DNA from: Streptomyces sp. HUAS MG91
Lineage (GTDB): Bacteria; Actinomycetota; Actinomycetes; Streptomycetales; Streptomycetaceae
Direction: 5' to 3'
DNA: 64,000 nucleotides
Assembly (NCBI RefSeq): GCF_040529335.1
Contig: NZ_CP159534.1
Location: forward strand, 6,448,001 to 6,512,000
Part shown: positions 1 to 13,646 of the stretch, piece after piece
How the letters are laid out: every line of letters starts with the position of its first letter
Position numbering within the stretch: the first letter of the stretch is position 1
Made by a program: the position numbers and the translations under genes
Notes under the pieces: generated by a model
What the model was told of the DNA's origin: nothing
Databases searched by the model: none
Seen by the model: the letters and a program-made list of their open reading frames with translations, nothing else

Positions 1-642
1 CAGCTCCCAGTCCTCGGTGCGTTCCTCCGGGCACAGCGGATCCGCGTCGCCGAACACCGCGAGCAGCGGGCAGCCAAGAAGCGGTTCCGGCCCCGAGCTG
101 TACTCCTCGACGGCCCGCAGGTCCGCCACGAGCGACGGCAGCAGCAGCGCCAGCATCTCCTCGTTCGCCGCCAGCGACGCGGGCACGCCGCCGAACTCCT
201 TCAGGATCTCGAGGATCTGCTCCGGGTCGTCGGTGTCCCGCAGCCGCCGCCGCTGCGGATCGGGCTTCTCGGTGACCGCCCACTGCGACACCGCCACGAA
301 CCCGGCCACCGGCACATCGCCCGTGCGCTGCAACGCCCGTACGGCCTCCAGCGCGAGCACCGCGCCGGAGCAGACGCCGACCACCAGCAGCGGCGCCGAA
401 CCCGGCAGCGCGCGGGCCGTCGCGACGACGTCCGCCGTCAACTCGGCCAGCCCGCCCACCGGTTCGCGCACCCGGGACTCGCGCCCCGGCAGCCGCGCCG
501 TGGCCACCGCCCAGTCGGCGGGGGTGTGCGCGGCGAACGCGGTGCCGCTCGCCGCGCCCGCGCCCGCGTGCGGCACGAGCAGCACCCGCCAGGCCGCGTC
601 CTCGGGGCGCGCGCCGTCGAGTCGGAAGGTCTTCACCGGCAT
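1..642 (-). CDS. Type II thioesterase of the PKS/NRPS cluster (3' end beyond window)
   Basis: This is an alpha/beta-hydrolase of the type II (GrsT-like) thioesterase family, which removes stalled or misloaded acyl groups from carrier-protein arms in PKS/NRPS assembly lines. About 214 residues are visible. The early LLVPHAGAGAAS stretch is typical of the family, and the nucleophile elbow reads GVCSG, placing the serine in the G-x-C-S-G variant of GxSxG. The C-terminal acid/histidine part begins (VFGDADPL, then EERTEDWE) but the catalytic histidine lies beyond the window edge. The ATG at 642 sits only 7 bases after the stop of the aminopeptidase gene, so it is co-transcribed with the megasynthases upstream. 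Its presence supports the reading that the operon makes a thiotemplated natural product. The family call is firm. The substrate is unknown. Confidence 0.9.
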   Translation of the reverse strand, partial: MPVKTFRLDGARPEDAAWRVLLVPHAGAGAASGTAFAAHTPADWAVATARLPGRESRVREPVGGLAELTADVVATARALPGSAPLLVVGVCSGAVLALEAVRALQRTGDVPVAGFVAVSQWAVTEKPDPQRRRLRDTDDPEQILEILKEFGGVPASLAANEEMLALLLPSLVADLRAVEEYSSGPEPLLGCPLLAVFGDADPLCPEERTEDWEL

Positions 643-649
643 CCGCGCG

Positions 650-1936
650 TCACCCGGCCGTCACGAACTCGGCGAGCCCGCGGGCGAGATGGCCCGGATC
701 GTCGGCGCCGACCAGTTCGCGCGCCGAGTGCATGGACAGGCCGGGGACGCCCACGTCGACGGTCGTCACGCCGAGCCGGGCCGCCGTGATCGGCCCGATG
801 GACGTGCCGCACGGCAGCGCGTTGTTGGACACGAACCGCTGCCACGGCACGTCGGCCCGCTCGCAGGCGGCGGCCCACGCGGCGAAACCGGTGCCCTCGG
901 TGGCGTACCGCTGGTTGGCGTTGACCTTGACGACCGGGCCGGCGTTCGGCAGCGGGTGGTTGTCGGGGTCGTGCAGCTCCGCGTAGTTGGGGTGGACGGC
1001 GTGGGACATGTCGGCGGAGACGCACAGGCCGCCCGCGAGCGCCCGCTCCCAGTCCTCGGCGCCGCCGCCGCGCGCGGTCACCGAACGGTGCAGCACCCGC
1101 TCCAGGAGCGGCCCCTGGGCGCCGGTCTCGGAGCCGCTGCCGGTCTCCTCGTGGTCGAACGCGGCGAGCACCGGGACCCGGTCGGGAGCCGCCTCCGCGG
1201 CGGCGGCCAGCAGCGCGGTGACGCCCGCGTGCACGGAGACGAGGTTGTCCAGACGCGACGACACGATGAACTCCCGTCGGGCGCCCAGGAGTCCGGGCGG
1301 CTGTACGTCGTGCAGCATCAGGTCCCAGCCCAGGACGTCGGCCGCGTCGATCCCGCCCTCGTGCGCGACCCGGCGCAGCAGCGCGCCGTGCTCGGTCGGG
1401 CCGAGCGACCAGATCGGCTGGGTCTGCCGCTGCCGGTGCAGGGACAGCCCGTCGTTCACGGTGTGGTCCAGGTGGATCGCCAACTGCGGTACGCGCAGCA
1501 GGGGTTCGTCGATCCGTACGAGGGCGGAGGTGCCGTCGCGCAGCGTCAGGCGGCCGGAGATGCCGAGGTCCCGGTCGAGCCAGGTGTTGAGCGGGACCCC
1601 GCCGTAGATCTCCACGGCGACCTGCCGCCAGCCCGCCCGGCCCGTGTCGGGCGTCGGCTTGACGCGCAGGTTCGGCGAGTCGGTGTGCACGCCCATGATG
1701 CGGAACGGCGCGTGGGCCGGGGCGCCCTCGGGCACGTACCAGGCAAGCAGCGCGCCGCCCTTGGCCAGGTACCGGCCGCCGCTGTGGCCGGTCCACTCCT
1801 CGGTGCCGGTCAGCTCGGTGAACCCGGCCTTCTCCAGGCGCCGCGCGGCCGAGGCCACCGCGTGGTACGGGGACGGGCTCTCCCGCAGGAACGCCAGCAG
1901 GTCCTCGACGTGCTCGGCTTGTGTGGGCAGGTTCAT
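650..1936 (-). CDS. M18 family zinc aminopeptidase embedded in the biosynthetic operon
   Basis: The 428-residue product matches the full length of M18 (aspartyl aminopeptidase, ApeB-like) dinuclear zinc exopeptidases. Family signatures are visible in order: the metal-ligand segment MGVHTDSPNLRVKP, the VNDGL stretch, AAFDHEETGSGSE (the catalytic and metal acids), and SADMSHAVHPNYAELHD with the later TSIGP and SMHSARE segments. No signal peptide is present, so it should be cytosolic. Its ATG overlaps the stop of the NRPS gene (ATGA), and the thioesterase follows 7 bases after its own stop, so it is translationally coupled to the assembly line. M18 enzymes are usually housekeeping. Inside this operon it may be a resistant copy of the product's target, or may trim an N-terminal residue from a precursor. 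Those roles are inferences. Confidence 0.9.
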   Translation of the reverse strand: MNLPTQAEHVEDLLAFLRESPSPYHAVASAARRLEKAGFTELTGTEEWTGHSGGRYLAKGGALLAWYVPEGAPAHAPFRIMGVHTDSPNLRVKPTPDTGRAGWRQVAVEIYGGVPLNTWLDRDLGISGRLTLRDGTSALVRIDEPLLRVPQLAIHLDHTVNDGLSLHRQRQTQPIWSLGPTEHGALLRRVAHEGGIDAADVLGWDLMLHDVQPPGLLGARREFIVSSRLDNLVSVHAGVTALLAAAAEAAPDRVPVLAAFDHEETGSGSETGAQGPLLERVLHRSVTARGGGAEDWERALAGGLCVSADMSHAVHPNYAELHDPDNHPLPNAGPVVKVNANQRYATEGTGFAAWAAACERADVPWQRFVSNNALPCGTSIGPITAARLGVTTVDVGVPGLSMHSARELVGADDPGHLARGLAEFVTAG

Positions 1937-4900
1937 TCGGCGTCCGCCTCCAGGGGCAGGGGGTGAGGGTGGTCGAGCAGCGCCGCGAGGGGGCGCCCGG
2001 GCTGCGTGCACAGCTCCCCGAGCAGCGCGGCGTACGAGGTGAGGAGCCCGTCGGCCGTGGTCGCGTCCCACAGGTCGGCCGAGTACTCCAGGAAGGTGCG
2101 CAGGCCCAGCGCCGGGTCGCGGCGCGGGGAGAGGCCGAAGACCAGCTCGGCGCGGGCGACCGGCGGCGCCAGGTCCTCGACCTCGACGGCGAGTCCGGGG
2201 ATCTCGATGTCGGTGTCGGGATAGTTCTGGAAGGCGAGCACGTTCGGCACCCGGTCGGGCACCTCGGTGGCGCCCGCGTCGCGCATCGCCTGCATGATGC
2301 GGGCCGTCGGCAGGACGTGTGCCATCACAGCGAGCGCCTCGGCGCCGGTGCGGGCGACCAGGTCGGCGAAGGACTCGCCGGGCTCGATCCGCACCCGCAC
2401 CATCACCGAGGTCGACACCATCGCCACCAGCGAGTCGCCCGCCGTGCCCGCCCGGTTGGCGTACGGCACGGCCAGCAGGACGTCCCGTTCCCCGGACAGC
2501 CGGGCCAGGTGCACGCCGAGCGCGGCGGCCGCGACCGCGAACGGCGTCTGCCGCACGGAGGCGGCCAGCTCCTCCAGTGCGGTACGGACGTCGGCGGGGA
2601 CCGTGCCGCGCACGGTGCCGCCCGCGCCGCTGAGCGTGTCGGGCCGCGGCCGGTCCGTGGGCGTGTCCAGTCGGCACGGCACGCCCTCCAGATAGCGCGC
2701 GCAGAACGCGGCGCGCCGCTCCTCCTCGGCCGGGTCGTGCGCCGTGAGCTGTTCCCGGGCGTACTCCGGGGCCTGCGCCGACGGCGCGGGCAGGGTGTGC
2801 GGGCGGCCGGCCGCCGCGGCCGTGTACAGCTCGGCCAGTTCGGCAAGGAGCACGGAGTGGGACCAGCCGTCGGCACTGGCGTGGTGCAGCACGAACATCA
2901 GCACCCAGCTGTCGTCGGCCACCTTCAGCAGCCGGCAGCGCGGGAGGACCGGCTCCGCGAGATCGAACGGTTTCGCCGCCATGCGCCGGCACACCGCGTC
3001 CGCCCGCTCCCGCGCCGCGTCCGGAGCGAGCAGGGACAGGTCGTCGACCCGCAGCCGCGGGGGCGGCGCGTCCACCACCTCCTGCCACCAGGCGCCGTCC
3101 GCGCCCCGCACGAAGCGGGTCCGCAGGGCGTGGTGCCGCTCGACGAGCCCGGCCAGGGCCGTGCGCAGCGCGTCCGGGTCCAGGGCGCCCCGGAAGCGGA
3201 TCCGGGTCGGCACGTTCCACACCTCGGCATGGGGGACGGCGTGATGGCCGGCGATCATCCGGTCCTGCTGGGGGCTGACGGGAGCACGGTCGACGACACC
3301 GGGCCCGACGTCCTCCAACTCCTGCTCGGCGACAGCTATATGACGGGCCATCGCCGCCGGGGTCGGATCCGCGAAGAAGTCGGCCAGCGCGATCTCCGCG
3401 CCCAGCACCTCCCGCACCCGGTTCACGAGCCGGATCGCCGTGATCGAGTTGCCGCCCAGGTCGAAGAAGTCCGCGTCGTCGGCGACCTCGTCCACGCCGA
3501 GCACCGCACGCCACACCTCCCGCACCTCGCCGCCCGCGCCGGACGGCCCGGGGCGGGTGTCCGCGACGGTCCGTGCCCCGTCCTCCACCATGGCGCGCAG
3601 CACCCGGTCCAGGTCGGCCAGGTGACCGCGGACCGTTCCGTCGTCGAAGAGGCCGGCGTCGTAGCGGATCCGCAGCCGCAGCCCCGACGGCGTGCGCACC
3701 GCCATGAGGGCGAGTTCGAGCGGTGCCGACGAGGCGCCGCCCGGGACGTCGGACGCGGTGAGCCCCGGCAGGCCGACACGGGTGAGCGGTGCCGTGTCCA
3801 GATCCGCGGAGACCGTGACGAGCGGGCGCGGCCGTCCCGCACCGCCGCCGAGCCGCGCCGCCAGTTCGTCCGGGTCGACCCGCTGGTGCCGCTCGGCCTC
3901 GAACAGGGCGTCGCGCGTGGCCCGCACCGCGTCGGTGACCGTCGTGCCGTCGGTGAGGGCCGCGCGCAGCGGCAGCACCGCGGCGTGGAAGCCGACGGTC
4001 CGCGCGGTCGCGGGCGTGCGCCGGGCGAACGTCGAGCCGATGACGAACTCGTCGAGGCCCGACCGCTCGCGCAGCACCAGCTGCCAGGCGGTGAGCAGCG
4101 TCGCGAACAGGGTGACGCCGTGCCGCCCGCTCCACTCCTGCACGGCCGTCGTGCGTGCCGCGTCGAGCAGCACCTCGGCCGCGGCGCCGCGCTCGGATCC
4201 CCGGCGTCCGCGCGGCCGGTCCGTCCGGGGCGCGGGCGCGGGCGGCAGCGGGTCCAGGTACTTCAGCCACCACTCCAAGTCCCCGTCGTCCGCCGGTGGT
4301 TCGGGCGCGTCGGCGGCCGTCCCGGCGGGCTCGGGGAAGCGCGGGGCGCGCCCCTGGACGCGGGCCGTGTACAGCTCCTGGAGATCGTCCGCGAGGAGCC
4401 GCGCCGAGTGGCCGTCCGTGACCAGGTGGTGCAGGCCGAACAGCAGGACGTGGTCGTCGTCGGCGAGCGTCAGCAGACGCGGGGCGAACAGCGGGCCGTC
4501 GGCGAGGTCGAAGGGGCGGGTGCTCGCCGCGCGCAGGGCGGCCCCGATCGCGGCGTCCGGATCCTCCTCCCGGGCGTCGGTCACCTCCAGCGGGACGCGC
4601 GGCGACGCCCGGACGATCTGCTGGAGCAGACCGTCCGCGCCGCCCGCGCGGAACACCGTGCGCAGCCCCGCGTGCCGGGCCACGAGCCCGTCGACGGCGG
4701 CGGTCAGCGCGGCCACGTCGAGCGGGCCGCGCAGCCGCACCGCCTGCACCTCGTTGTACGCGGCCGGGTCCCCGGCCAGCTGCGCGGCGAGCCAGAGCCG
4801 GCGCTGGGCGGCGCTCGCGGGCGCGGTGACGTCCTCGGGGACGGCCCCCGACTCCGCGAGAGTGTTCTCCCGCAGTTCGGCGAGCCGGTCCAGGCCGGCC

Positions 4901-7437
4901 CGCGCGAGATCCGCGGGCATACCGAAGTCGACCAGGGCGGCGATCTCGTCGACGCCCGCGTCCCGCAGCGCCGCCACCACCGGCGCACACGTCCCGGGCG
5001 TGCCGATCAGCGCCCGCTCGTCGCAGTACCGGTCGTAGGCCCGCAGGAACAGATACTCCAGGTCGGCCTCGCTCGCCTCCGCCACGTCCCGCTCGCCGGA
5101 GGCGACGGCCCCGGCCGCCGACCGCATCTGGAGCGAGGAGCGCAGATAGCGGGTCATCGGCTCGCGGGCCTGCGCCCGCGCCGTCGCGTGGTCGTCGGCG
5201 AGATGGGTGTGCAGGAGGACGGTGACGCGGCCCGCGTCCGGGTCCAGGCCGTGCCGGGCGCGTGCGGCACGGTAGTGAGTGATGTTCGCGGCGAGTTCGG
5301 CGACGGTCTGGTTCATCAGGTTCGTGACGATGCCGAGGTCGCGGCGGGCCGCCTCCTCGTACGACGCCCGGCGCCCGGACGTCGCCAGGAACATCGGCGG
5401 GGCCTCCCGCACCGGCCGCGGCAGCGTCCCCACGTCGACCGGACGGCCGTCGCCGCCCTCCCGGCGCACGGTGCCGCCGCGCCACAACTCCCGTACAGCA
5501 TCGAGGTGTTCGAAGGCGATCTCGGTGCGCCGGGCGAACCGGTCCGGGTGCAGCGCGAAGTCCCGCGCGTGCCAGCCGGTGGCGCAGCCGAGGCCCACCC
5601 GGCCCCCGGACAGCCGGTCCACGACCGCCCACTCCTCGGCGACCCGCACCGGGTCGTGCAGCGGCAGCACCACGGACCCCGCGTTCAGCCGGATCCGCTC
5701 GGTCTCCCGGGCGAGCGCGGCGGCGACCACGGCCGGGTTCGGGAACAGCCCGCCGAAGGAGTGGAAGTGCCGCTCGGGGATCCACAGCGAGCTGAACCCG
5801 TGCGTGTCCGCGAACCGGGCCGTCTCCACGATCCGGTCGTACGCCTGTGAGGTGTCCTCGGCGTCCGGGTAGTCACCGAAGAAGTAGACGCCGAAGTCGG
5901 GCGCGGGACGCGGCGATTGAGCCTTCGAGGCCGTCCTCGTCCGGCTGGTGGCCGGGAAGAACCCGCCCTCGCGCAGCTCCCGCAGCGAGCCCTTCACCGC
6001 GTCGGCGACCCGCTCGACGTCCGCGTCCGTGTGCGCGGTCGACAGATAGAAGCTGCGCCACTCCCACACGTAGATCCCGCGCAGCAGCAGATGCTGGTAC
6101 AGCAGCTCCATGTCGGCGCGGTGCGTGAAGCGGAACATGGACCCGAAGTGCGCCAGCTCCAGCGGGAACTCCTCGTCGCGGAAGAACGTGTTGAGGTCGT
6201 CGGCGAGCGCGTCCGTGCGCGCGTTGAGCCGCTCCTGCAAGGCCGGTCCCTCGGCGGTCAGATGCGTGAGGACCGCCTTGGCCGCCGCCATCGACAGCGG
6301 GTGCTGGAGGTAGGTGCCGCCGAAGAAGGTGGTCTCCGCGCCGGGCGCGCTGTCGTCGCCGTAGCGCCAGAACCCGCCGTCCACCCCGTCGAGGAGATCC
6401 GCGCGCCCCGCGATCGCGCCCACCGGGAAGCCGCTGCCGAGCGCCTTGCCGTACGTGGCCAGGTCCGGGACCACGCCGAAGTGGTGCTGGGCGCCGCGCG
6501 GGTGCGGGCGCAGACCGGTCAGCATCTCGTCGAAGAGCAGCACGATGCCGCGCCGCCGGGTCAGCTCCCGCAGTGAGCGCAGGAACTCGACGGGCCGCAG
6601 GGCGGGGTTGCGGCACTGGACCGGCTCCACGACCACGGCGGCGAGGGAGTCGCCGAGCGCGTCGATGGTGTCCAGCGCCTCCTGGCTGCCGTACTCCAGG
6701 ACCAGCAGATCGGCGACCGCGCTCGCCGGGATGCCGCGCGACACCGGCACCGCGCGTCCGCCGTCGGGGCCGGGGCGGCCGAGGACCGGGTCGATGTGGC
6801 CGTGGTAGGAGCCGCGGAACATGACGACGCGGTCCCGGCCGGTCGCGGCGCGGGCCAGCCGGATCGCGCCCGAGTTCGCCTCCGTACCGGAGTTCGCGAA
6901 CGCCACCCGCTCCAGGCCCGTCAACCCGGCCAGCAGCTCGGCGACCTCACCGGCCTCGACCGGACGCGGCCCGAACCGCAGCCCGCCGTCGAGATGGGCC
7001 CGCACCGCCTGCGTCACGCACTCCGGCTCGTGCCCGAGGAGCAGCGCGCCGAAGCCCATCGTGATGTCGGTGTACGTGTTGCCGTCGATGTCCGTCAGAC
7101 GCGCGCCCCGCGCCGAGCGGGCCGACAGCGGGTACAGCGTCTCCTTCGTGGCGCGCCGGAACCCGACCACGGCACGGCTGTCCGCGAGGACCGGGCGCCG
7201 CCGCTGCGCCAACTCCTTCGAGGACGCGGTGCGTTCGCTCAGCCGCCGGGCGAGGTCGGCGGCGTGCGCGCGCTGCCGTGCGTCGGCGCCCGCGCCCGCC
7301 ATCCCCGAGTCCGCGGGCAGCACGACCCGCGGACCGTGCTGCTCCGCGGGCGCGGCGGCGCGGCTCCGGGCGCGGGCGAGCTGCGCCGTGAGGTCCCGGG
7401 AGAGCTGTGCGGCGCGGTCCGCCGCCGACGCCGTCAT
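1933..7437 (-). CDS. Hybrid NRPS protein: aminotransferase, luciferase-like monooxygenase, C, PCP, C (no A domain)
   Basis: This 1834-residue multidomain protein begins with a class III PLP aminotransferase (about residues 75-490, PLP lysine K331 in TYGKALG). Next is a luciferase-like monooxygenase of the natural-product type (about 510-855, RHFHSFGGLFPNP motif). Then come a condensation domain (about 868-1290, HHLVTDG from H1003), a carrier domain (LGGNS, phosphopantetheine serine S1331) and a second condensation domain (about 1389-1834, HHASADG from H1518). No adenylation motifs occur between the first C and the PCP, so the carrier must be loaded in trans. The aminotransferase should convert a PKS-made beta-ketoacyl thioester to a beta-amino one, and the monooxygenase should oxidise it, by family precedent at the alpha carbon. 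The ATG at 7437 overlaps the PKS stop. Domain calls are firm; the product is inferred. Confidence 0.92.
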   Translation of the reverse strand: MTASAADRAAQLSRDLTAQLARARSRAAAPAEQHGPRVVLPADSGMAGAGADARQRAHAADLARRLSERTASSKELAQRRRPVLADSRAVVGFRRATKETLYPLSARSARGARLTDIDGNTYTDITMGFGALLLGHEPECVTQAVRAHLDGGLRFGPRPVEAGEVAELLAGLTGLERVAFANSGTEANSGAIRLARAATGRDRVVMFRGSYHGHIDPVLGRPGPDGGRAVPVSRGIPASAVADLLVLEYGSQEALDTIDALGDSLAAVVVEPVQCRNPALRPVEFLRSLRELTRRRGIVLLFDEMLTGLRPHPRGAQHHFGVVPDLATYGKALGSGFPVGAIAGRADLLDGVDGGFWRYGDDSAPGAETTFFGGTYLQHPLSMAAAKAVLTHLTAEGPALQERLNARTDALADDLNTFFRDEEFPLELAHFGSMFRFTHRADMELLYQHLLLRGIYVWEWRSFYLSTAHTDADVERVADAVKGSLRELREGGFFPATSRTRTASKAQSPRPAPDFGVYFFGDYPDAEDTSQAYDRIVETARFADTHGFSSLWIPERHFHSFGGLFPNPAVVAAALARETERIRLNAGSVVLPLHDPVRVAEEWAVVDRLSGGRVGLGCATGWHARDFALHPDRFARRTEIAFEHLDAVRELWRGGTVRREGGDGRPVDVGTLPRPVREAPPMFLATSGRRASYEEAARRDLGIVTNLMNQTVAELAANITHYRAARARHGLDPDAGRVTVLLHTHLADDHATARAQAREPMTRYLRSSLQMRSAAGAVASGERDVAEASEADLEYLFLRAYDRYCDERALIGTPGTCAPVVAALRDAGVDEIAALVDFGMPADLARAGLDRLAELRENTLAESGAVPEDVTAPASAAQRRLWLAAQLAGDPAAYNEVQAVRLRGPLDVAALTAAVDGLVARHAGLRTVFRAGGADGLLQQIVRASPRVPLEVTDAREEDPDAAIGAALRAASTRPFDLADGPLFAPRLLTLADDDHVLLFGLHHLVTDGHSARLLADDLQELYTARVQGRAPRFPEPAGTAADAPEPPADDGDLEWWLKYLDPLPPAPAPRTDRPRGRRGSERGAAAEVLLDAARTTAVQEWSGRHGVTLFATLLTAWQLVLRERSGLDEFVIGSTFARRTPATARTVGFHAAVLPLRAALTDGTTVTDAVRATRDALFEAERHQRVDPDELAARLGGGAGRPRPLVTVSADLDTAPLTRVGLPGLTASDVPGGASSAPLELALMAVRTPSGLRLRIRYDAGLFDDGTVRGHLADLDRVLRAMVEDGARTVADTRPGPSGAGGEVREVWRAVLGVDEVADDADFFDLGGNSITAIRLVNRVREVLGAEIALADFFADPTPAAMARHIAVAEQELEDVGPGVVDRAPVSPQQDRMIAGHHAVPHAEVWNVPTRIRFRGALDPDALRTALAGLVERHHALRTRFVRGADGAWWQEVVDAPPPRLRVDDLSLLAPDAARERADAVCRRMAAKPFDLAEPVLPRCRLLKVADDSWVLMFVLHHASADGWSHSVLLAELAELYTAAAAGRPHTLPAPSAQAPEYAREQLTAHDPAEEERRAAFCARYLEGVPCRLDTPTDRPRPDTLSGAGGTVRGTVPADVRTALEELAASVRQTPFAVAAAALGVHLARLSGERDVLLAVPYANRAGTAGDSLVAMVSTSVMVRVRIEPGESFADLVARTGAEALAVMAHVLPTARIMQAMRDAGATEVPDRVPNVLAFQNYPDTDIEIPGLAVEVEDLAPPVARAELVFGLSPRRDPALGLRTFLEYSADLWDATTADGLLTSYAALLGELCTQPGRPLAALLDHPHPLPLEADAE

Positions 7438-10400
7438 CGGGCGGAGCGGTCGGCGCCGAGCAGGGCCACCGCCTCGGAGAGCTGGGTCAGCATCGCCGCC
7501 TGCGTCTCGGCCAACAGGTTGACCTGGCGCGTGAGTTCGGCGATCTCGGCGCGGGTGGCGTACTCGGCCGGCGGTGCCGGCTCCTCCTTGACGGGGGTGA
7601 TCACCCGGGCCTCGGGCGGTGCGGCGGGGCGCTCGCGCCGCTCGGCGATGAGCCCGGCCGTCAGCTCCGGTGTCCCCGCGTCCTCCAGGATCTCCCGGAT
7701 GGCGATCCGCACGTCGAACTCGGCCTCCAACTGGCGCAACATGCCGATCAGTTGCAGGGAGTCGGCGCCCAGCCCCACATAGGTCTGCGCGGGCGCCACC
7801 TCGTCCAGGGTGAAGCCCAGATGGTGCGCGGTCAGCTCGCGCACGCGGGTGAGCACCGGGCGGTCCTGGTCCTGTGCGGTCACTGCGTCCTCCACGGGGG
7901 GTTCGGGGGCGGGGGCGGGGCCCGTCCAGTAGGAGCGGTGCTGGAAGGGGTAGGTGGGCAGCGGGATCCGGCGGCCCGCGTGTCCGGCGAGCAGCGCCGT
8001 CCAGTCGACGGCCGTGCCCGCGCACGTCAGCCCGGCCACGGCCTGCCACAGCCCGTCGACATCGGCGGCCCTGCCCTGCGTCGGCAGGCACGGCACATCC
8101 GGCAGGGCCCGGCGCGCCATGCCGGTGAGCGGGGCGCCCGGCCCCAGCTCCAGCAGGACGTCCCGGTCGGCGAGGGCGCGCAGCACGGCGTGGAAGTCGG
8201 CGGTGCGGCGGGCCTGCCGCACCAGATAAGCGGCGTCGGGGCGCCAGCCCGCGGCGTGGACCGTGCCGTCGAGGCCGGACACGAACTCGGTCTCCACCGG
8301 CCGGAGTTCGACGTCCTCCACCGCCGCCCGCAGCTCGTCGAGCATCGGGTCGAGCAGCGCGGTGTGGAACGCCCGGTCGACCGGGAGCGGTTCGCAGGGC
8401 ACGTCGGCAAGGAGCCGCCGCGCCGCCGCCACCGCCTCGGGGCGGCCCGCGACGACATGGTGCGCGGGCCCGTTCACCACGGCGAGTTCCAGCCCGGCGC
8501 CCACCTCGTCGAGCAGCGCCCGCACCCGCGCGTACGGGGCGAACACGGCGAGCATCGCCCCGGGCGCGGTCTCCCGCATGAGCCGGCCCCTGCGGCACAG
8601 CAGCCGCATCCCGTCCTCCAGGGACAGCGCGCCGGCCGCGTACAGCGCCGCGTACTCCCCGACGCTGTGCCCGCCGACGGCCGCGGGACGCACCCCCAGG
8701 GACTCCCACAGCCGCACCTGCGCGGCCTGGAACGCGAACAGCGCGGGCTGGGCGAACGCCGTGTCCCACTGCCCGGGACCCGCCCCCGCCACCAGCCGCC
8801 CGGTGAAGTCGCCTTCTCCCGACTCCTGTTGATGGATCCGGGCGCAGGCGTCCAGCGTCGCGGCGACCACCGGGAAGCGCTCCGCGAGCGCCGCCGCCAT
8901 CCCCGGCGCGGCCCCGCCCTGCCCGCTGAACAGGAACACCGGCGCCGCCGGACCGTCCACCGTCCCCGTGCGGTACGCGGCCGGATCGGTCCGCCCCGCC
9001 AGGAACGCGTCGAGCCCTTCGCGGGGGTCGCCCGTCACGACGAGGCGGTGCTCGTGGTGACGGCGGCCCAGCGCGGTCGTGGTGAGCAGGTCGGCCGGGT
9101 CGAGCCCTGGATCACGTACGAGCGCGTCCCGGAACGCACGCGCGTACGCGGTGAGCGCCTCGGAGCCGCGGGCCGAGAGCGGCAGCAGCGGGGGAGCGCC
9201 GGACGGCGTCCTGGGCGGGACGGGCGGCGCCTGCTCCAGGACCACATGGGCGTTCGTGCCGCCCATGCCGATGGAGTGGACGCCCGCCCGGCGCGGTCCG
9301 TTGTCATCGGCGGGCCAGGCGGTCGCCCGGCGCGGCAGCGTGAACGGGCTCTCCTCGACCCCGAGCAGGGGATTGGCCCGGGTGAAGTTCACCAGGGGCG
9401 GGATCACGCCGTGCCGCAGCACCAGGATCGCCTTGATGAGCCCGGCGAGCCCGGCCGCGCTGTCCAGATGCCCGATCGCGGGCTTCGTCGAGCCGAGCGC
9501 GCAGAACCCCGTCCGGTCGGTGTGCCGGCGCAGGGCCTCGGTGAGCGCGGCGAACTCGATCGGATCGCCCTTGTACGTGCCCGTGCCGTGCGCCTCCAGA
9601 TAGCGGACCGACTCCGCCGGCACCCCGGCCGCCGCCAGCGCGCCGAGCACTGCATCCCGCTGCCCGGCCACGCCCGGAGCCGCGAAACCCGCCTTGTCCG
9701 CGCCGTCGTTGGTGACCGCCGAGCCGAGGATCACCGCGTGCACGGTGTCCCCGTCGGCGAGCGCGCGCTCCAGCGGCTTGAGGACCACGGCGGCCACCCC
9801 GTTGCCGCCGACCGTGCCGTCCGCCGCCGCGTCGAAGGCCCGTACCGCACCCGTCGGCGAGAGCGTCGACCCCTTCACCCGCCGGTGCCCGGTGATCTGC
9901 GGCAGGTGCAGCGCCGACGAACCGACCAGCATCAGCTCCGCGTCACCGGCCGACAGCGCCTGACAGGCCAGGTGCACGGAGACGAGCGCGCTGGAACAGG
10001 CCGTGGCCACGTTGACGGCGGGACCGGTCAGGCCGAGCCGGAACGCGGCCCGGTTCGCCGTGAAGTCCGGGTAGTTGCCGACCTGGATCTGCTTCACGGC
10101 CGTCCAGTCGTCGCCGGCCGCCTGCTCCCCGATGTTCCGCGCCAAGTAACTGTGCAACGAGTACAGGCGGTAGCCCACGCTCGCGTACACCCCGATCCGG
10201 GCGTCCGTGCCCGCGTACCCGGCGTCCTCCAGCGCGTGCCAGGCGCACTCCAGGAACAGCCGCTGCTGCGGATCGGTGACCGTGGCCTCGCGTCCGCTCA
10301 TCCCGAAGAACGCCGCGTCGAACCCGTCGATCCCGGGCAGCAGCGCGCTCGCCCCACCGAACTCCGGTTCCTTGTACGTCGCTTCGGGCACCCCGGCGGC

Positions 10401-10532
10401 CGCGAAGTCGGCGTCGCCGAACCGGCGTACGTGCGTCACGCCCGCCGCGATGTCCCGCCAGTACGCGTCCGGGCCGTCAGCTCCCGGAAACCTCAGCGCC
10501 ATCCCGACGACCGCCACGCGCCGGTCCCGCAT
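7434..10532 (-). CDS. Single-module type I polyketide synthase KS-AT-ACP with C-terminal coiled coil
   Basis: This 1032-residue modular PKS carries one minimal elongation module. The ketosynthase spans about residues 3-430 with active-site C179 in TACSSA, then EAHGTGT and the GHLDSA histidine motif. The acyltransferase has GHSVGEY (S623) and a downstream RAFHT segment close to the HAFH signature of malonyl-CoA selectivity. The ACP has GLGADSL (S925). There is no KR, DH or ER, so the beta-ketone is left intact, exactly the substrate the aminotransferase in the next protein needs. The last 50 residues (AEIAELTRQVNLLAETQ) form a short coiled coil, probably a docking element to that protein. The ATG at 10532 has a GGAGGAGGGG site just upstream. 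The start overlaps the MFS gene end by 56 bases. The starter unit is not evident from the window. Confidence 0.93.
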   Translation of the reverse strand: MRDRRVAVVGMALRFPGADGPDAYWRDIAAGVTHVRRFGDADFAAAGVPEATYKEPEFGGASALLPGIDGFDAAFFGMSGREATVTDPQQRLFLECAWHALEDAGYAGTDARIGVYASVGYRLYSLHSYLARNIGEQAAGDDWTAVKQIQVGNYPDFTANRAAFRLGLTGPAVNVATACSSALVSVHLACQALSAGDAELMLVGSSALHLPQITGHRRVKGSTLSPTGAVRAFDAAADGTVGGNGVAAVVLKPLERALADGDTVHAVILGSAVTNDGADKAGFAAPGVAGQRDAVLGALAAAGVPAESVRYLEAHGTGTYKGDPIEFAALTEALRRHTDRTGFCALGSTKPAIGHLDSAAGLAGLIKAILVLRHGVIPPLVNFTRANPLLGVEESPFTLPRRATAWPADDNGPRRAGVHSIGMGGTNAHVVLEQAPPVPPRTPSGAPPLLPLSARGSEALTAYARAFRDALVRDPGLDPADLLTTTALGRRHHEHRLVVTGDPREGLDAFLAGRTDPAAYRTGTVDGPAAPVFLFSGQGGAAPGMAAALAERFPVVAATLDACARIHQQESGEGDFTGRLVAGAGPGQWDTAFAQPALFAFQAAQVRLWESLGVRPAAVGGHSVGEYAALYAAGALSLEDGMRLLCRRGRLMRETAPGAMLAVFAPYARVRALLDEVGAGLELAVVNGPAHHVVAGRPEAVAAARRLLADVPCEPLPVDRAFHTALLDPMLDELRAAVEDVELRPVETEFVSGLDGTVHAAGWRPDAAYLVRQARRTADFHAVLRALADRDVLLELGPGAPLTGMARRALPDVPCLPTQGRAADVDGLWQAVAGLTCAGTAVDWTALLAGHAGRRIPLPTYPFQHRSYWTGPAPAPEPPVEDAVTAQDQDRPVLTRVRELTAHHLGFTLDEVAPAQTYVGLGADSLQLIGMLRQLEAEFDVRIAIREILEDAGTPELTAGLIAERRERPAAPPEARVITPVKEEPAPPAEYATRAEIAELTRQVNLLAETQAAMLTQLSEAVALLGADRSAR

Positions 10533-11757
10533 CGCCGCCCCCCTCCTCCGCGGACGCCGGATCCGTGCGCCGCTGCCGCAGCACCTGCGCGACGAACACC
10601 ACGGCCACCACGATCGCGACGCCGTGCGCCACACCGACCACGGAGAGCGGGGAGAACACGTCGAGCGCCGCCGCGACCGCGATCATGCCGACGCCGAAGC
10701 CGAGGTTCTCCACCGTCGCCGACAGCCCGAACGCGTGGGTGCGCAGGTGCGTCGGCAGCGTCTGGAGGTGCGAGCTGTACGACACCTCGGTGACCCCGTC
10801 GGCCGCGCCCGCCAGCAGCGCGACCACGATCGTCGCGGCCCACGGGAACCCGGCGAAGGCGAGGATGAACGTCGCCGACATCGCGATCGTGCCGAGCCCG
10901 AACCCGAGCGCGCCGACGGACCGTCCGTCCCGCTTCACCCACCGCTGGAGCACCTGCTGCACGAGGACGTTGCCGAGCGCCCACACGCACCAGAAGACAC
11001 TGACGAACACGGCGGGCCGGTCGGCGTCCAACTGCGTGGAGTACACCGGCAGGGCCGCGTTGTGCGAGGACGAGCCGAGCGCGTCGATGCCGCGCAGCGC
11101 CACCATCAGCGCGATGACCGGGGCGGTGGCGAGCGCCGCCAGCGCGCCCGGACCGCGCTTCCTGTCCGCCGCGGCCGGGGCGCTCTCCCGGCGCTCCGTC
11201 CGCGCGGTCAGCGGCAGCAGCGCCACGGTGCCCGCGCAGACCAGGAACGTCGCCATGTCCAGCAGGAACGCGGCCCGGTAGCCGAGCAGCGACACCACGA
11301 CACCCGACGACGCGAACCCGACCACCATCGCCATCGAACGGCCGCTCACCATCAGCGAGTTGGCCCAGGTGTGCCGGCCCTCGTCCACCATGTCCGGGAT
11401 CGAACTGCGGAAGGCGACCATGAAGAACGTGCCCGCCCCGCCGACCACCGCCGAGACCAGGAACAGTGCCGCCGTGCGCAGCCCGTCCGGCGCGCAGACA
11501 AGCAGCACCAGCGCGGCGGCCTGCACCACGTTCGCCCAGAACATCACCGGCTTCGCCGCCCACCGGGCGAGCAGCGCGGCGGCCCCGAGCCCCGCCAGGA
11601 ACCCGGCGGCCAGCCGGACGGCCATGAACACACCCACCGCGAGGGCCCGGTCCGTCACCGCGTAGACGTACAGGTTGAGCGCGACCAGATTCAGGTACGT
11701 GCCATAGGAGGAGATCGCGTAACCGGTCACCAGGATGCGGTACCGGCGTTCCTTCAT
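10477..11757 (-). CDS. MFS transporter, probable product exporter
   Basis: The 426-residue polytopic membrane protein has about 12 hydrophobic spans and the general look of the MFS_3/EntS-like family (start MKERRYRILVTGYAISSYG). It has a central charged loop (RTERRESAPAAADRKRG) separating two six-helix halves. It lies between the decarboxylase and PKS genes on the same strand, so export of the cluster's product and a share in self-resistance are likely. The final 19 codons overlap the PKS 5' end in another frame, so the two genes share 56 bases. That is longer than the ATGA couplings elsewhere in the operon. A 132-base gap precedes the gene and contains paired GAACG/CGTTC-type motifs at about 11779-11822, so an internal promoter is possible. 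Substrate assignment is inference. Confidence 0.85.
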   Translation of the reverse strand: MKERRYRILVTGYAISSYGTYLNLVALNLYVYAVTDRALAVGVFMAVRLAAGFLAGLGAAALLARWAAKPVMFWANVVQAAALVLLVCAPDGLRTAALFLVSAVVGGAGTFFMVAFRSSIPDMVDEGRHTWANSLMVSGRSMAMVVGFASSGVVVSLLGYRAAFLLDMATFLVCAGTVALLPLTARTERRESAPAAADRKRGPGALAALATAPVIALMVALRGIDALGSSSHNAALPVYSTQLDADRPAVFVSVFWCVWALGNVLVQQVLQRWVKRDGRSVGALGFGLGTIAMSATFILAFAGFPWAATIVVALLAGAADGVTEVSYSSHLQTLPTHLRTHAFGLSATVENLGFGVGMIAVAAALDVFSPLSVVGVAHGVAIVVAVVFVAQVLRQRRTDPASAEEGGGDAGPARGGRRDGAEVSGS

Positions 11758-11889
11758 GGAGCGTTCCTTTGCGAGCGGGCCCGTACGAATGCGAACGAGT
11801 GAGCGGTGGTTCGAACGTTCCGCACCCTAGGCGGGGGACTCCTCCCTTCGCAGGAAGATCATGGAAGTTTTCCGGGCGGACGGCTCGAT

Positions 11890-13227
11890 CTACATCCCCA
11901 CGTCGCGGCTGCGCAGGTCCTCCATCGACTCCCGGCGCACGAGCAGCCGGACCCGCCCGTCGCGCACGGCCGCCACCGGCGGACGGCCCACCAGGTTGTA
12001 GCCGGACGCCATCGACAGGTGGTACGCCCCGGCGACCGGTACGGCGAGCAGATCGCCCACCCGTACGTCGGCGGGCAGCGGGACGTCGGCGGCGACCACG
12101 TCACCGGCCTCGCAGTGCCGGCCCACGACCGTCATCGGGGCGCGCTCGGCGCTGCCCGCCCGGCCCACGAGCCGGGGCGCGTACCGCACTCCGTACAGGG
12201 CGGGCCTGGGGTTGTCGCTCATGCCGCCGTCCACGGCGACGAAGGTGCGGCCGCCGGTCCGCTTGACGGAGACGACGTGGTAGAGCGCGATGCCGGACGG
12301 CCCGGCGATGGCCCGGCCCGGCTCGATGATCAGGCGCGGCACGGGCAGCCGCGCCGCCGCGCAGGCGTCGGCCAGTTCGGCGCGCACCCGGCGGGCCAGC
12401 CGGGTCAGGTCGAGAACCGGTTCGCCGGGCCGGTAGGCGATGCCGTGACCGCCGCCGAGATCCAGCTCCGGCAGGACCAGGCCGTGCTGTTCGTGCAGCC
12501 GCGCCATCAGGCCGACCATCCGGCGCACCGCCGACAGGAATGGCTTGATCTCGGTGATCTGCGAGCCCAGATGGCAGTGGAGTCCGGTCAGTTCGAGCTG
12601 CGGCTGGTCGAGGATGCGGGCGATGGCGTGCTGCGCGTAGCCGTCGGAGAGGGACAGGCCGAACTTCTGGTCCTCGGTGCCGGTCCGGATCTTCTCGTGG
12701 CCGCCCGCGCTGATGCCGGGCACGATGCGCACCATCACCTTCTGGTGCCCGTCCGGGCCGACGGCGGCGGCGAGCCGGGCGATCTCGGAGGGGCTGTCGA
12801 TGACGATGCGGCCGACGCCGTACCAGAGGGCCTTCTTCAGGTCGTGCGGCGTCTTGGCGTTGCCGTGCAGCACGATGCGGCCGGCGGGGAATCCGGCGGC
12901 GACGGCCAGTTCGAGTTCACCGGCGGAGCAGACGTCGAGGCCGAGCCCCTCCTCGTCCATCCAGCGGGCCATGGCGCGGCACAGGAACGCCTTGGCCGCG
13001 TAGTGCACCTCGGCCTCGGGGAAGACGTCCCGGTAGGTGCGGCAGCGGCGGCGGACCTCGGCCTCGTCGAGGACGTACACCGGGGTGCCGAAGCGGCCGG
13101 CGACCTCGGCGAGCGCGACGCCGCCGACGGTCAGGTCGCCGGGGCGGGGTTCGGCGGTGGAGGCGGGCCAGACCGAGAGTTCCTCCGCGGCGCCGGTGGC
13201 GAGGGAGGTTTCGTGGACGGTGGTCAT
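11890..13227 (-). CDS. PLP fold-III decarboxylase, diaminopimelate decarboxylase-like
   Basis: The 445-residue product belongs to the alanine-racemase-fold decarboxylases that include LysA. The PLP lysine is K79 (HYAAKAFLC). HGNAKTP, a glycine-rich GGGHGI phosphate loop and IIEPGR follow in normal order. The substrate/catalytic cysteine motif reads HCEAGD rather than the usual CESGD, and the C-terminal substrate motif reads SMASGYN rather than a Y-N-type LysA end. The start at 13227 follows an AAGGGA site. It lies 17 bases after the SAV_915-type gene and upstream of the MFS, PKS and NRPS genes. It could be a second LysA. It could also be a pathway enzyme making an amine building block, in the way the butirosin enzyme BtrK decarboxylates a carrier-bound glutamate. 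The fold is certain, the substrate is not. Confidence 0.85.
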   Translation of the reverse strand: MTTVHETSLATGAAEELSVWPASTAEPRPGDLTVGGVALAEVAGRFGTPVYVLDEAEVRRRCRTYRDVFPEAEVHYAAKAFLCRAMARWMDEEGLGLDVCSAGELELAVAAGFPAGRIVLHGNAKTPHDLKKALWYGVGRIVIDSPSEIARLAAAVGPDGHQKVMVRIVPGISAGGHEKIRTGTEDQKFGLSLSDGYAQHAIARILDQPQLELTGLHCHLGSQITEIKPFLSAVRRMVGLMARLHEQHGLVLPELDLGGGHGIAYRPGEPVLDLTRLARRVRAELADACAAARLPVPRLIIEPGRAIAGPSGIALYHVVSVKRTGGRTFVAVDGGMSDNPRPALYGVRYAPRLVGRAGSAERAPMTVVGRHCEAGDVVAADVPLPADVRVGDLLAVPVAGAYHLSMASGYNLVGRPPVAAVRDGRVRLLVRRESMEDLRSRDVGM

Positions 13228-13244
13228 GGTGGCGTGGTCCCTTC

Positions 13245-13646
13245 TCAGCCGATCCAGTACGACAGCGCGGTCACCAGGGCGGCGGCCCCGGTCACCCGGA
13301 GCACACCGACCGCCTGGGCGTCCCAGCCGCGCCGCCGCCCGGTGACGGCGGTCGGAGTGGGCGCGGGGGCGGTGAGCTGCGGATCGACGGTGACCGTGGC
13401 GGCGCCGAGCGGCGCGGTCAGGGCCCGCAGCGCGGGCTCCGCGAGCCGGATCCACGGCTGGTCGGGGCCGAGCGTGGCGGCCAGCGCCCGCTCGGAGGTG
13501 AAGCCGACGGCCGTGCGGCCGCCGAGCGGGGTGCGGAACAGGCGGGCGGCGTGCCCGAAGGGGCCCGGCCGGACGGGGACGAAGAGCGGTCCGGCCGGGA
13601 ACCGTTCAGCGGGTTCCGGGTCGTCGCCGCACACGAGTTCGGTCAT
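13245..13646 (-). CDS. SAV_915 family protein with C-terminal membrane anchor
   Basis: The 133-residue protein has an N-terminal SseB-like region (RTPLGGRTAVGFTSERAL, then GPDQPWIRLAEPALRALTAPLG) characteristic of the actinobacterial SAV_915 family. A proline-rich linker and a single hydrophobic C-terminal span (about residues 110-131) follow. The ATG at 13646 has a textbook AGGAGG six bases upstream. It is the first gene of the long minus-strand operon, 17 bases ahead of the decarboxylase, so it is transcribed with the biosynthetic genes. The family has no established biochemical role. It may be incidental to the pathway or may help position or protect the machinery at the membrane. The call rests on motif memory of the family. 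Confidence 0.7.
   Translation of the reverse strand: MTELVCGDDPEPAERFPAGPLFVPVRPGPFGHAARLFRTPLGGRTAVGFTSERALAATLGPDQPWIRLAEPALRALTAPLGAATVTVDPQLTAPAPTPTAVTGRRRGWDAQAVGVLRVTGAAALVTALSYWIG

What the first reader, a model, noticed from the sequence alone, without database searches (positions are those of the whole stretch)
1..13646. Biosynthetic operon predicted to make an alpha-hydroxy-beta-amino acyl compound
Seen directly: a KS-AT-ACP module with no reductive domain is followed by a protein with aminotransferase, luciferase-like monooxygenase, C, PCP and C. Established: the aminotransferase plus monooxygenase pair after a PKS module is used in reported cyanobacterial pathways (microginin, puwainaphycin type) to build beta-amino, alpha-oxidised acyl chains. 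Inference: this actinobacterial version makes a bestatin-, amastatin- or microginin-like warhead. The domain order without an A domain and the added decarboxylase and M18 peptidase are not ones I can match to a described actinobacterial cluster.
Basis: partly seen in the sequence, partly recalled or inferred. Interest (0 to 1): 0.75.

Follow-up and report, generated by a model that had tools for sequence, protein, structure and literature searches.

The report
Streptomyces peptide operon with immunity aminopeptidase
A widespread soil-bacterium gene set appears to make a small protease-blocking peptide and seems to carry its own spare peptidase as protection, a spare that some non-producing relatives have kept after losing the rest.

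Summary
On the minus strand lie KS-AT-ACP, aminotransferase-LLM-C-PCP-C, an MFS exporter, a lysA-like decarboxylase and an M18 aminopeptidase. The operon runs 3.2 kb past the window's left edge (thioesterase, A-PCP, argininosuccinate-synthase-related protein), so the 'missing' A domain is in trans.
Domain relatives (MycA aminotransferase, PuwE monooxygenase) and intact motifs support an alpha-hydroxy-beta-amino acyl unit.
(2) M18, not the decarboxylase, is core: 32 of 32 testable relatives without an in-cis A domain carry it, 0 of 18 with one. (3) It is a second copy beside a housekeeping M18. Of 36 genomes that hold it, 16 lack the biosynthetic genes; six of these kept exporter plus M18. These orphans nest inside the operon clade, are intact and under purifying selection. 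I read M18 (with the exporter) as immunity, so the product is probably an aminopeptidase inhibitor. (4) The ArgG-like protein best matches a nitrile synthetase and keeps its three reported amide-contact residues, so this branch may make a nitrile-bearing peptide. Starter, residues, target and product are unproven.

The parts
1933..7437 (-). aminotransferase-LLM monooxygenase-C-PCP-C protein (1834 aa); about: AMT 7260-5938, LLM 5895-4870, C1 4845-3583, PCP 3522-3328, C2 3315-1981
7434..10532 (-). PKS KS-AT-ACP (1032 aa), malonyl-type AT motif (recalled rule), no reductive domain
650..1936 (-). second M18 aminopeptidase (428 aa), proposed immunity protein
10477..11757 (-). MFS exporter (426 aa); its relatives are kept beside M18 in six genomes without the biosynthetic genes
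1..642 (-). thioesterase (255 aa in full, -125..642) with GVCSGA where others read GHSMGA; continues left of the window
11890..13227 (-). LysA-like PLP decarboxylase (445 aa), one of two LysA-like copies in the genome; accessory, only in closest relatives
13245..13646 (-). SAV_915-domain protein (133 aa); accessory

Best explanation
A Streptomyces operon for a short hybrid peptide. The KS takes an acyl starter from the cell's pool and adds one malonyl unit; the beta-ketoacyl-ACP is transaminated by the MycA-like domain and alpha-hydroxylated by the PuwE-like flavin monooxygenase, giving an alpha-hydroxy-beta-amino acyl unit (inferred from families and intact motifs). C1-PCP-C2 plus the trans A-PCP add one or two residues; the cysteine-type thioesterase may help release (inferred). 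The product leaves by the MFS. It probably inhibits di-metal aminopeptidases, and the operon's second M18 aminopeptidase is the immunity protein, most likely an inhibitor-tolerant copy of the target. In this sub-branch the A-PCP residue is probably a side-chain nitrile made from Asn or Gln by the ArgG-like enzyme. Shown: gene content, conservation, second-copy status, presence of M18 (with or without MFS) at the operon's sites in genomes without the pathway, residue conservation. Inferred: chemistry, target, immunity function, nitrile.
For: Aminotransferase to MycA 421.7 bits, monooxygenase to PuwE 323.6 bits; motifs intact. M18 in 32 of 32 testable A-less relatives and 0 of 18 relatives with an A domain in cis, one of which (L063) ends inside the gene. 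Second copy beside a 60%-identical M18. 36 of 295 same-genus genomes hold the operon-type M18 at E <= 1e-195; the 20 with the family-I AMT-LLM are all among them; the other 16 are orphans. Six orphans keep MFS+M18 with PKS and NRPS genes gone from the site. Orphans lie in at least four places inside the operon clade; dN/dS of M18 pairs from orphan loci 0.08-0.20. Partial control: operon-type thioesterase at 65% identity or more in 11 of 295 genomes, all 11 with the AMT-LLM. ArgG-like protein: nitrile synthetase 312.8 bits against 152.5 for the best true ArgG; ArtA Q146/S197/D199 aligned and kept in 120 of 120 homologs listed, of 1167 found.
Against: No product, assay or expression data. Starter unknown; the A code DM[S/C/A/I/G/V]YLG[L/I][I/V][Y/H] matches no specificity I can recall. 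No second A domain for the first PCP. M18 enzymes are recalled as acidic-residue peptidases poorly sensitive to bestatin, so a plain leucine-like warhead would fit M18 badly. The orphan search started from M18, and orphans of MFS, PKS, SDR or A-PCP were not sought; the thioesterase control is weak, because relatives at 58-60% identity sit in thioesterase-SDR cassettes elsewhere without the AMT-LLM. Several orphans share one loss by descent. G128 has Y331 without the ArgG-like gene.
Confidence: 0.5

Rival explanations
1. The M18 is immunity, but it works by hydrolysing or sequestering the product rather than as a tolerant copy of the target.
For: Active-site motifs are intact, and the orphan pattern fits any immunity gene.
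Against: Aminopeptidases are normally blocked by an alpha-hydroxy-beta-amino N terminus rather than cleaving it (bestatin-type inhibitors, recalled). Ten near-fixed differences from the housekeeping copy include M310 beside the Asp of the SAD motif, which suits altered binding but does not show it.
Confidence: 0.25
2. The M18 is a maturation peptidase that trims a biosynthetic intermediate, as PepN does for leucylblasticidin S (title and start of abstract of PMC4664946, seen in the listing).
For: It overlaps the AMT gene by four bases and is present in every testable A-less relative.
Against: 16 of 36 genomes keep it with no family-I pathway to serve, with dN/dS like that of operon copies.
Confidence: 0.13
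3. The M18 clade is an older stand-alone paralog of unrelated function, and the biosynthetic genes moved in around it later.
For: Orphans sit at two conserved chromosomal sites; the tree alone does not prove the direction of change.
Against: Orphans fall in at least four places among operon copies. An MFS gene precedes the PKS in 17 of 18 relatives that have no M18 (the other, L056, starts inside the PKS), so MFS belonged to the pathway first, and MFS+M18 without the PKS is most simply a deletion. Types Ia and Ib keep the same gene order.
Confidence: 0.13
4. The ArgG-like protein does not make a nitrile; it couples another amine to a ureido or amide group.
For: It keeps the ArgG fold family and P-loop, and the family is annotated only as 'argininosuccinate synthase-related'. 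Two of the three ArtA residues (Ser, Asp) also occur in the own-genome ArgG.
Against: It is nearer the nitrile synthetase than any solved ArgG. At 9 of the 13 sites outside Ia operons it lies beside a 2OG dioxygenase and an EamA exporter, which suits a free amino acid as substrate.
Confidence: 0.35
5. The oxidised carbon ends as an alpha-keto group (as in poststatin or eurystatin, recalled) rather than alpha-hydroxy.
For: Ib relatives add an SDR next to the thioesterase (18 of 20).
Against: The window's operon has no such oxidase, and the SDR also lies beside thioesterase and A-PCP genes in other settings without the AMT-LLM, so it may act on another residue. The aminotransferase-monooxygenase pair is tied to a 3-amino-2-hydroxy motif (PMC13252402, passages).
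Confidence: 0.13

Closest known systems
Puwainaphycin, microginin and tychonamide type aminotransferase-monooxygenase modules (cyanobacteria)
   Same: PKS module followed by aminotransferase and monooxygenase (PuwE is the best solved relative of the LLM); 3-amino-2-hydroxy motif (PMC13252402, abstract and passages).
   Different: No starter-activating domain seen; short line; A domain in trans; M18, cysteine-type thioesterase and ArgG-like enzyme added; actinobacterial.
Mycosubtilin synthetase MycA aminotransferase (Bacillus)
   Same: Best solved relative of the aminotransferase domain (421.7 bits); acts on a beta-ketoacyl thioester (recalled).
   Different: MycA has no luciferase-like monooxygenase and uses a long fatty acyl chain (both recalled).
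Bestatin, amastatin, phebestin class aminopeptidase inhibitors (Streptomyces)
   Same: Same predicted N-terminal alpha-hydroxy-beta-amino unit and a similar peptide length (their structures are recalled).
   Different: No link to any of their gene clusters could be tested; none appears among the papers listed. The possible nitrile has no counterpart there.
ArtA/NitB, ArgG-like nitrile synthetase of the auranthine pathway
   Same: 312.8 bits over residues 10-388 to the PDB 'nitrile synthetase' 9lei; Q146, S197, D199 kept. That 9lei is ArtA is my inference.
   Different: Bacterial, in a PKS-NRPS operon beside an A-PCP; substrate not known.

Membership tests
Beta-amino-alpha-hydroxy acyl PKS-NRPS (aminotransferase + LLM type) | Non-reducing KS-AT-ACP followed by class-III aminotransferase and MupA/PuwE-type monooxygenase | tested here: met
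Beta-amino-alpha-hydroxy acyl PKS-NRPS (aminotransferase + LLM type) | Catalytic residues intact | tested here: met
   motifs listed; PLP lysine aligned to MycA; flavin contacts not examined
Beta-amino-alpha-hydroxy acyl PKS-NRPS (aminotransferase + LLM type) | Product contains the 3-amino-2-hydroxy unit | not testable with these tools
   needs the compound
Bestatin/amastatin-type aminopeptidase inhibitor | Product inhibits a metallo-aminopeptidase | not testable with these tools
   indirect only: M18 copy and its retention
Bestatin/amastatin-type aminopeptidase inhibitor | Gene cluster homologous to a proven producer's | tested here: inconclusive
   no such cluster among the papers listed; no MIBiG on hand
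Cluster-encoded self-resistance by a second enzyme copy | Paralog of a housekeeping enzyme inside the cluster | tested here: met
Cluster-encoded self-resistance by a second enzyme copy | Kept by relatives that lack the biosynthetic genes | tested here: met
   16 of 36 genomes; partial control
Cluster-encoded self-resistance by a second enzyme copy | Confers tolerance | not testable with these tools
   bench test
ArgG-like nitrile synthetase (ArtA/NitB) | Closer in sequence to the solved nitrile synthetase than to ArgG | tested here: met
   312.8 against 152.5 bits
ArgG-like nitrile synthetase (ArtA/NitB) | Amide-contact residues Q146, S197, D199 | tested here: met
   numbering by a constant offset of 29 that I inferred; S and D also occur in the own-genome ArgG
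ArgG-like nitrile synthetase (ArtA/NitB) | Dehydrates an amide to a nitrile | not testable with these tools
   bench test

The most novel reading that the evidence does not exclude
A widespread Streptomyces family makes alpha-hydroxy-beta-amino peptides whose target is the M18 aminopeptidase itself; immunity is a dedicated second M18, and non-producers keep it (with the exporter in one lineage) because they meet the compound. Behind a fixed core (MFS, PKS, AMT protein, M18) the branches swap residue cassettes; the window's cassette adds a nitrile amino acid made by an ArgG-like nitrile synthetase, giving a bacterial nonribosomal peptide nitrile.
Probability: 0.33. Interest if true: 0.82.

Novelty: new variant of a known kind. 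Interest (0 to 1): 0.64.

Why it matters
It turns a cryptic cluster into a testable one: a candidate target (M18), a candidate immunity gene with natural carriers that lack the pathway as a comparison set, and a candidate chemistry (3-amino-2-hydroxy unit, possibly a nitrile residue). None of the papers listed (15 of 15 found; 1 of 1; 20 of 2,080) is, by title and start of abstract, about an M18 enzyme as a self-resistance determinant; the unlisted papers were not seen. A 2026 preprint calls auranthine the only nitrile-containing peptide natural product discovered before its own nitrilobacillins (PMC13060819, passages). If the immunity reading holds, the orphans would also show that the compound is met in nature.

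Tried and rejected
Considered and dropped: the very long minus-strand frames reaching up to 8769 or 9111; the gene's start is 7437 inside them. The plus-strand 1309-aa frame at 1921-5850 has no Pfam match. Lysine or diaminopimelate chemistry by the decarboxylase as part of the pathway: dropped, 2 of 32 relatives with room have it. A-PCP as starter loader for the KS: not favoured, because KS identity stays high between branches with different A codes, and 17 of the 18 relatives with A in cis show no second A hit in the held DNA (L063 shows one); not excluded. Random retention of M18: an M18 search sees only M18 carriers, so I searched the same 295 genomes with the AMT-LLM (all 20 family-I genomes have the M18) and the Ib thioesterase. 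The latter gave 59 genomes at E <= 1e-60: 11 at 65% identity or more, all with the AMT-LLM. The cut at 65% was set after seeing the list (Ib loci: 64-100%), so I fetched the next four sites (G086 60%; G173, G080, G060 58%): a thioesterase next to an SDR in all four and to an A-PCP relative in three, in other settings. Those genomes lack the operon-type M18. Orphans of MFS, PKS, SDR or A-PCP were not searched for. Rows dropped: one search left out M18 hits under 380 aligned residues and seven duplicate rows; one search used 8 of the 22 housekeeping rows, dropped three duplicates, and has no row for G127, G178, G203, G218 and G287. Structure prediction was not used. Papers listed for bestatin, amastatin, phebestin, probestin, poststatin, eurystatin or lapstatin (9 of 10; 17: 4 of 4; 25: 1 of 1; 39: 6 of 6) show no gene cluster by title and start of abstract; (20 of 30 listed) gave PMC13252402. 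The library lacks most subscription papers.
Full report
What is there. The window is G000:C1:6448001-6512000 of an 8.6-Mb genome; the nearest named relatives of its proteins are Streptomyces. The finding is real and lies on the minus strand. In transcription order: SAV_915-domain protein (13245-13646), LysA-like decarboxylase (11890-13227), MFS (10477-11757), KS-AT-ACP (7434-10532), aminotransferase-LLM-C-PCP-C (1933-7437), M18 aminopeptidase (650-1936), thioesterase (-125..642), A-PCP (-2014..-122) and an argininosuccinate-synthase-related protein (-3207..-2011); negative numbers lie left of the window. From PKS to ArgG-like protein, neighbours overlap by four bases except M18/thioesterase.

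Chemistry. The aminotransferase domain's best solved relative is MycA of mycosubtilin (421.7 bits) and the monooxygenase's is PuwE (323.6 bits; puwainaphycin, recalled). KS, AT, ACP, aminotransferase, both C domains and the PCP keep the motifs I looked for; the AT motif is of the malonyl type (recalled rule). This supports one malonyl extension, transamination of the beta-keto group and alpha-hydroxylation. A 2026 preprint on cyanobacterial peptides ties an aminotransferase-monooxygenase combination to a 3-amino-2-hydroxy motif (PMC13252402, abstract and passages). The starter is unknown: no loading domain was seen in the operon; relatives were checked only with the window's own domains and by gene calls in some loci.

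Family. A protein search found 999 relatives of the AMT-LLM region, 120 listed. A scan of one genome per species with two conserved peptides gave 57 loci. 39 have no A domain inside the AMT protein, as in the window; 18 have one, including Amycolatopsis, Catenulispora and Kineosporia. Of the 39, 32 run far enough to show what follows, and all 32 have the M18 next; none of the 18 does, though one of these (L063) ends inside the gene. The 32 fall into two types. Ia (12, window type) has a thioesterase reading GVCSGA in 12 of 12. Ib (20, S. griseus, S. globisporus, S. anulatus and others) has GHS[M/L]GA in the 19 with a thioesterase, an SDR in 18 of 20 and an A hit in 17 of 20, with the code DFWSVGMVH or, in L038, DFWNVGMVH (threonine by recalled codes). 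The tenth letter K printed was appended by the script, not read. A cysteine at the thioesterase nucleophile is recalled from beta-lactone and beta-lactam forming enzymes; the only hint here is a weak match to ObiF1.

Swappable cassettes. The downstream genes travel without the core. The Ib set (thioesterase-SDR-A-PCP) has relatives at 58-60% thioesterase identity beside an SDR in four other genomes, three of them with an A-PCP relative. The Ia A-PCP with an overlapping ArgG-like gene recurs in a different PKS-NRPS cluster of G167 (code DMIYLGLIY). So I read the operon as a core (MFS, PKS, AMT protein, M18) plus an exchangeable residue cassette.

The M18 is a second copy. The genome also holds a 60%-identical M18 elsewhere. 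In 61 same-genus genomes (one of them the own), nine have a copy of 74% identity or more, and each of these also has a 59-66% copy; the others have only a 59-67% copy (in G047 and G050 as two pieces), and G008 has none. In a 66-row tree the operon-type copies form one clade apart from the housekeeping copies (100/100; also with 60 rows). The HTDSP, RxDN, DHEE, S[A/S]D and SMHS motifs (metal and catalytic sites, recalled) are kept in both classes; ten positions differ almost cleanly between 38 operon-type and 22 housekeeping rows, one (M310) next to the Asp of the SAD motif.

Orphan M18. Of 295 same-genus genomes, 36 have the operon-type M18. Twenty of these have the family-I AMT-LLM (in G126 the operon is split over two contigs, L189). 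The other 16 do not: G005, 024, 056, 075, 095, 100, 116, 147, 155, 158, 166, 171, 179, 204, 208, 221 (recount); four of them (G024, G075, G100, G166) carry a more distant AMT-LLM elsewhere. I fetched all 16 loci. They lie at two chromosomal sites that in other strains hold the Ib operon; flanks were matched by BLAST for 13 (L182 on one side only) and by the N-termini printed for L129, L130 and L131. In six, MFS and M18 remain side by side and PKS, AMT protein, thioesterase, SDR and A-PCP are gone from the site (L175, L176, L177, L179, L181, L185); in nine M18 remains without MFS; in one (L182) the contig starts just before M18. G267 has a full Ia operon and an additional lone M18 (L188). In the tree the orphans occupy at least four places inside the operon clade (five changes of the operon label, one of them the housekeeping split). 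No stop lies in the 15 orphan M18 hits checked, and L182 is open. dN/dS between pairs from orphan loci is 0.08-0.20 for M18 and 0.18-0.26 for MFS, against 0.18-0.20 and 0.18-0.23 for operon pairs; some pairs include time before the loss. Partial losses also occur: L046 lacks the A-PCP, L028 lacks SDR and A-PCP, L061 lacks thioesterase, SDR and A-PCP; M18 stays in all three.

Control for the search bias. A search by M18 can only find M18 carriers. In the same 295 genomes all 20 family-I AMT-LLM genomes have the M18. The Ib thioesterase at 65% identity or more occurs in 11, all with the AMT-LLM; the cut was set afterwards, and the hits just below it belong to cassettes in other settings, so this control only says that no close operon thioesterase was left behind. 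Orphans of MFS, PKS, SDR and A-PCP were not searched for. Within these limits M18 outlives the pathway. A biosynthetic or maturation role would not explain that; immunity does. Since the predicted N-terminal unit is the classical mimic for di-metal aminopeptidases (recalled) and M18 is such an enzyme (recalled), the simplest mechanism is a tolerant copy of the target; hydrolysis or sequestration of the product remains open.

The nitrile branch. The ArgG-related protein matches NF038212 (574.6 bits, cut-off 425) and is only 25% identical to the genome's own ArgG. Its best solved relatives are two entries named nitrile synthetase (9lei and 9leh, 312.8 and 310.5 bits), against 152.5 for the best ArgG. 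A preprint states that ArtA/NitB catalyse only the amide-to-nitrile step, with amide-interacting residues Q146, S197 and D199 in ArtA, and ties this chemistry to auranthine (PMC13060819, passages and section 10). With a constant offset of 29, which I inferred, these are positions 175, 226 and 228 of 9lei, and all three are the same in the window's protein. They are kept in 120 of 120 listed homologs (1167 found); the own-genome ArgG shares Ser and Asp and aligns Glu to the Gln, in a stretch too diverged for a sure alignment. Among the 12 named Ia loci the gene is present in eight, all with Tyr at code position 331; three without it have His; the fourth (L046) has lost the A-PCP. G128 breaks the rule: Tyr without the gene. 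Of 19 genomes with the gene, six have it in an Ia operon (in G236 with one in-frame TGA) and nine beside a 2OG-Fe dioxygenase and an EamA exporter; Pfam was run for two of the nine, the rest were recognised by BLAST to these. All this points to a free or carrier-bound amino acid such as Asn or Gln as substrate, but that is inference.

What remains open. How the first PCP is loaded without its own A domain, the starter, the number of residues, the release step, the target and the structure. The decarboxylase (52% identical to the other LysA-like copy) is found only in the closest relatives and is probably accessory.

Verdict. New variant of a known kind; interest 0.64.

Noticed in passing
L133 7781-10837, L134 357-3447, L192, L197-L202: A recurring three-gene cassette: ArgG-like (putative nitrile synthetase), 2OG-Fe dioxygenase (PF10014) and EamA exporter, in 9 of the 19 genomes with the ArgG-like gene. 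It may make and export a hydroxylated nitrile amino acid.
   Followed up: partly
L203 2-13052 (G167:C255): A different PKS-NRPS cluster that carries the same A-PCP type with an ArgG-like gene overlapping it.
   Followed up: partly
L219 1569-6164, L220 1797-6508, L222 5812-10176, L221 5300-6855: Relatives of the Ib thioesterase and SDR side by side in four genomes, three with an A-PCP relative, in settings without the AMT-LLM.
   Followed up: partly
L207 7269-14057 (G068): An ArgG-like gene near separate A, PCP and C proteins of another kind.
   Followed up: no
[not shown]
   Followed up: partly
window 1-642 (gene -125..642): The Ia thioesterase has Cys where type II thioesterases have the nucleophile Ser (GVCSGA) in 12 of 12 Ia loci.
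   Followed up: partly
window 11890-13227: A second LysA-like decarboxylase, 52% identical to the other copy, tied to the operon only in the window and its close relatives L012 and L014.
   Followed up: partly
L131 11176-13035; L047 3573-5273: An AMP-binding (acyl-CoA ligase type) gene stands beside the operon or orphan M18 at one of the two sites; a possible starter supplier there, absent from the other site's flanks.
   Followed up: no
L191 (G236) ArgG-like gene; L169 and L174 (G149) AMT gene: One in-frame TGA in the G236 ArgG-like match and an AMT-LLM match split in two pieces in G149: decay or sequencing errors.
   Followed up: no
L061 (S. californicus), L028, L046: Operons with downstream thioesterase, SDR or A-PCP genes missing but M18 still present.
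   Followed up: partly
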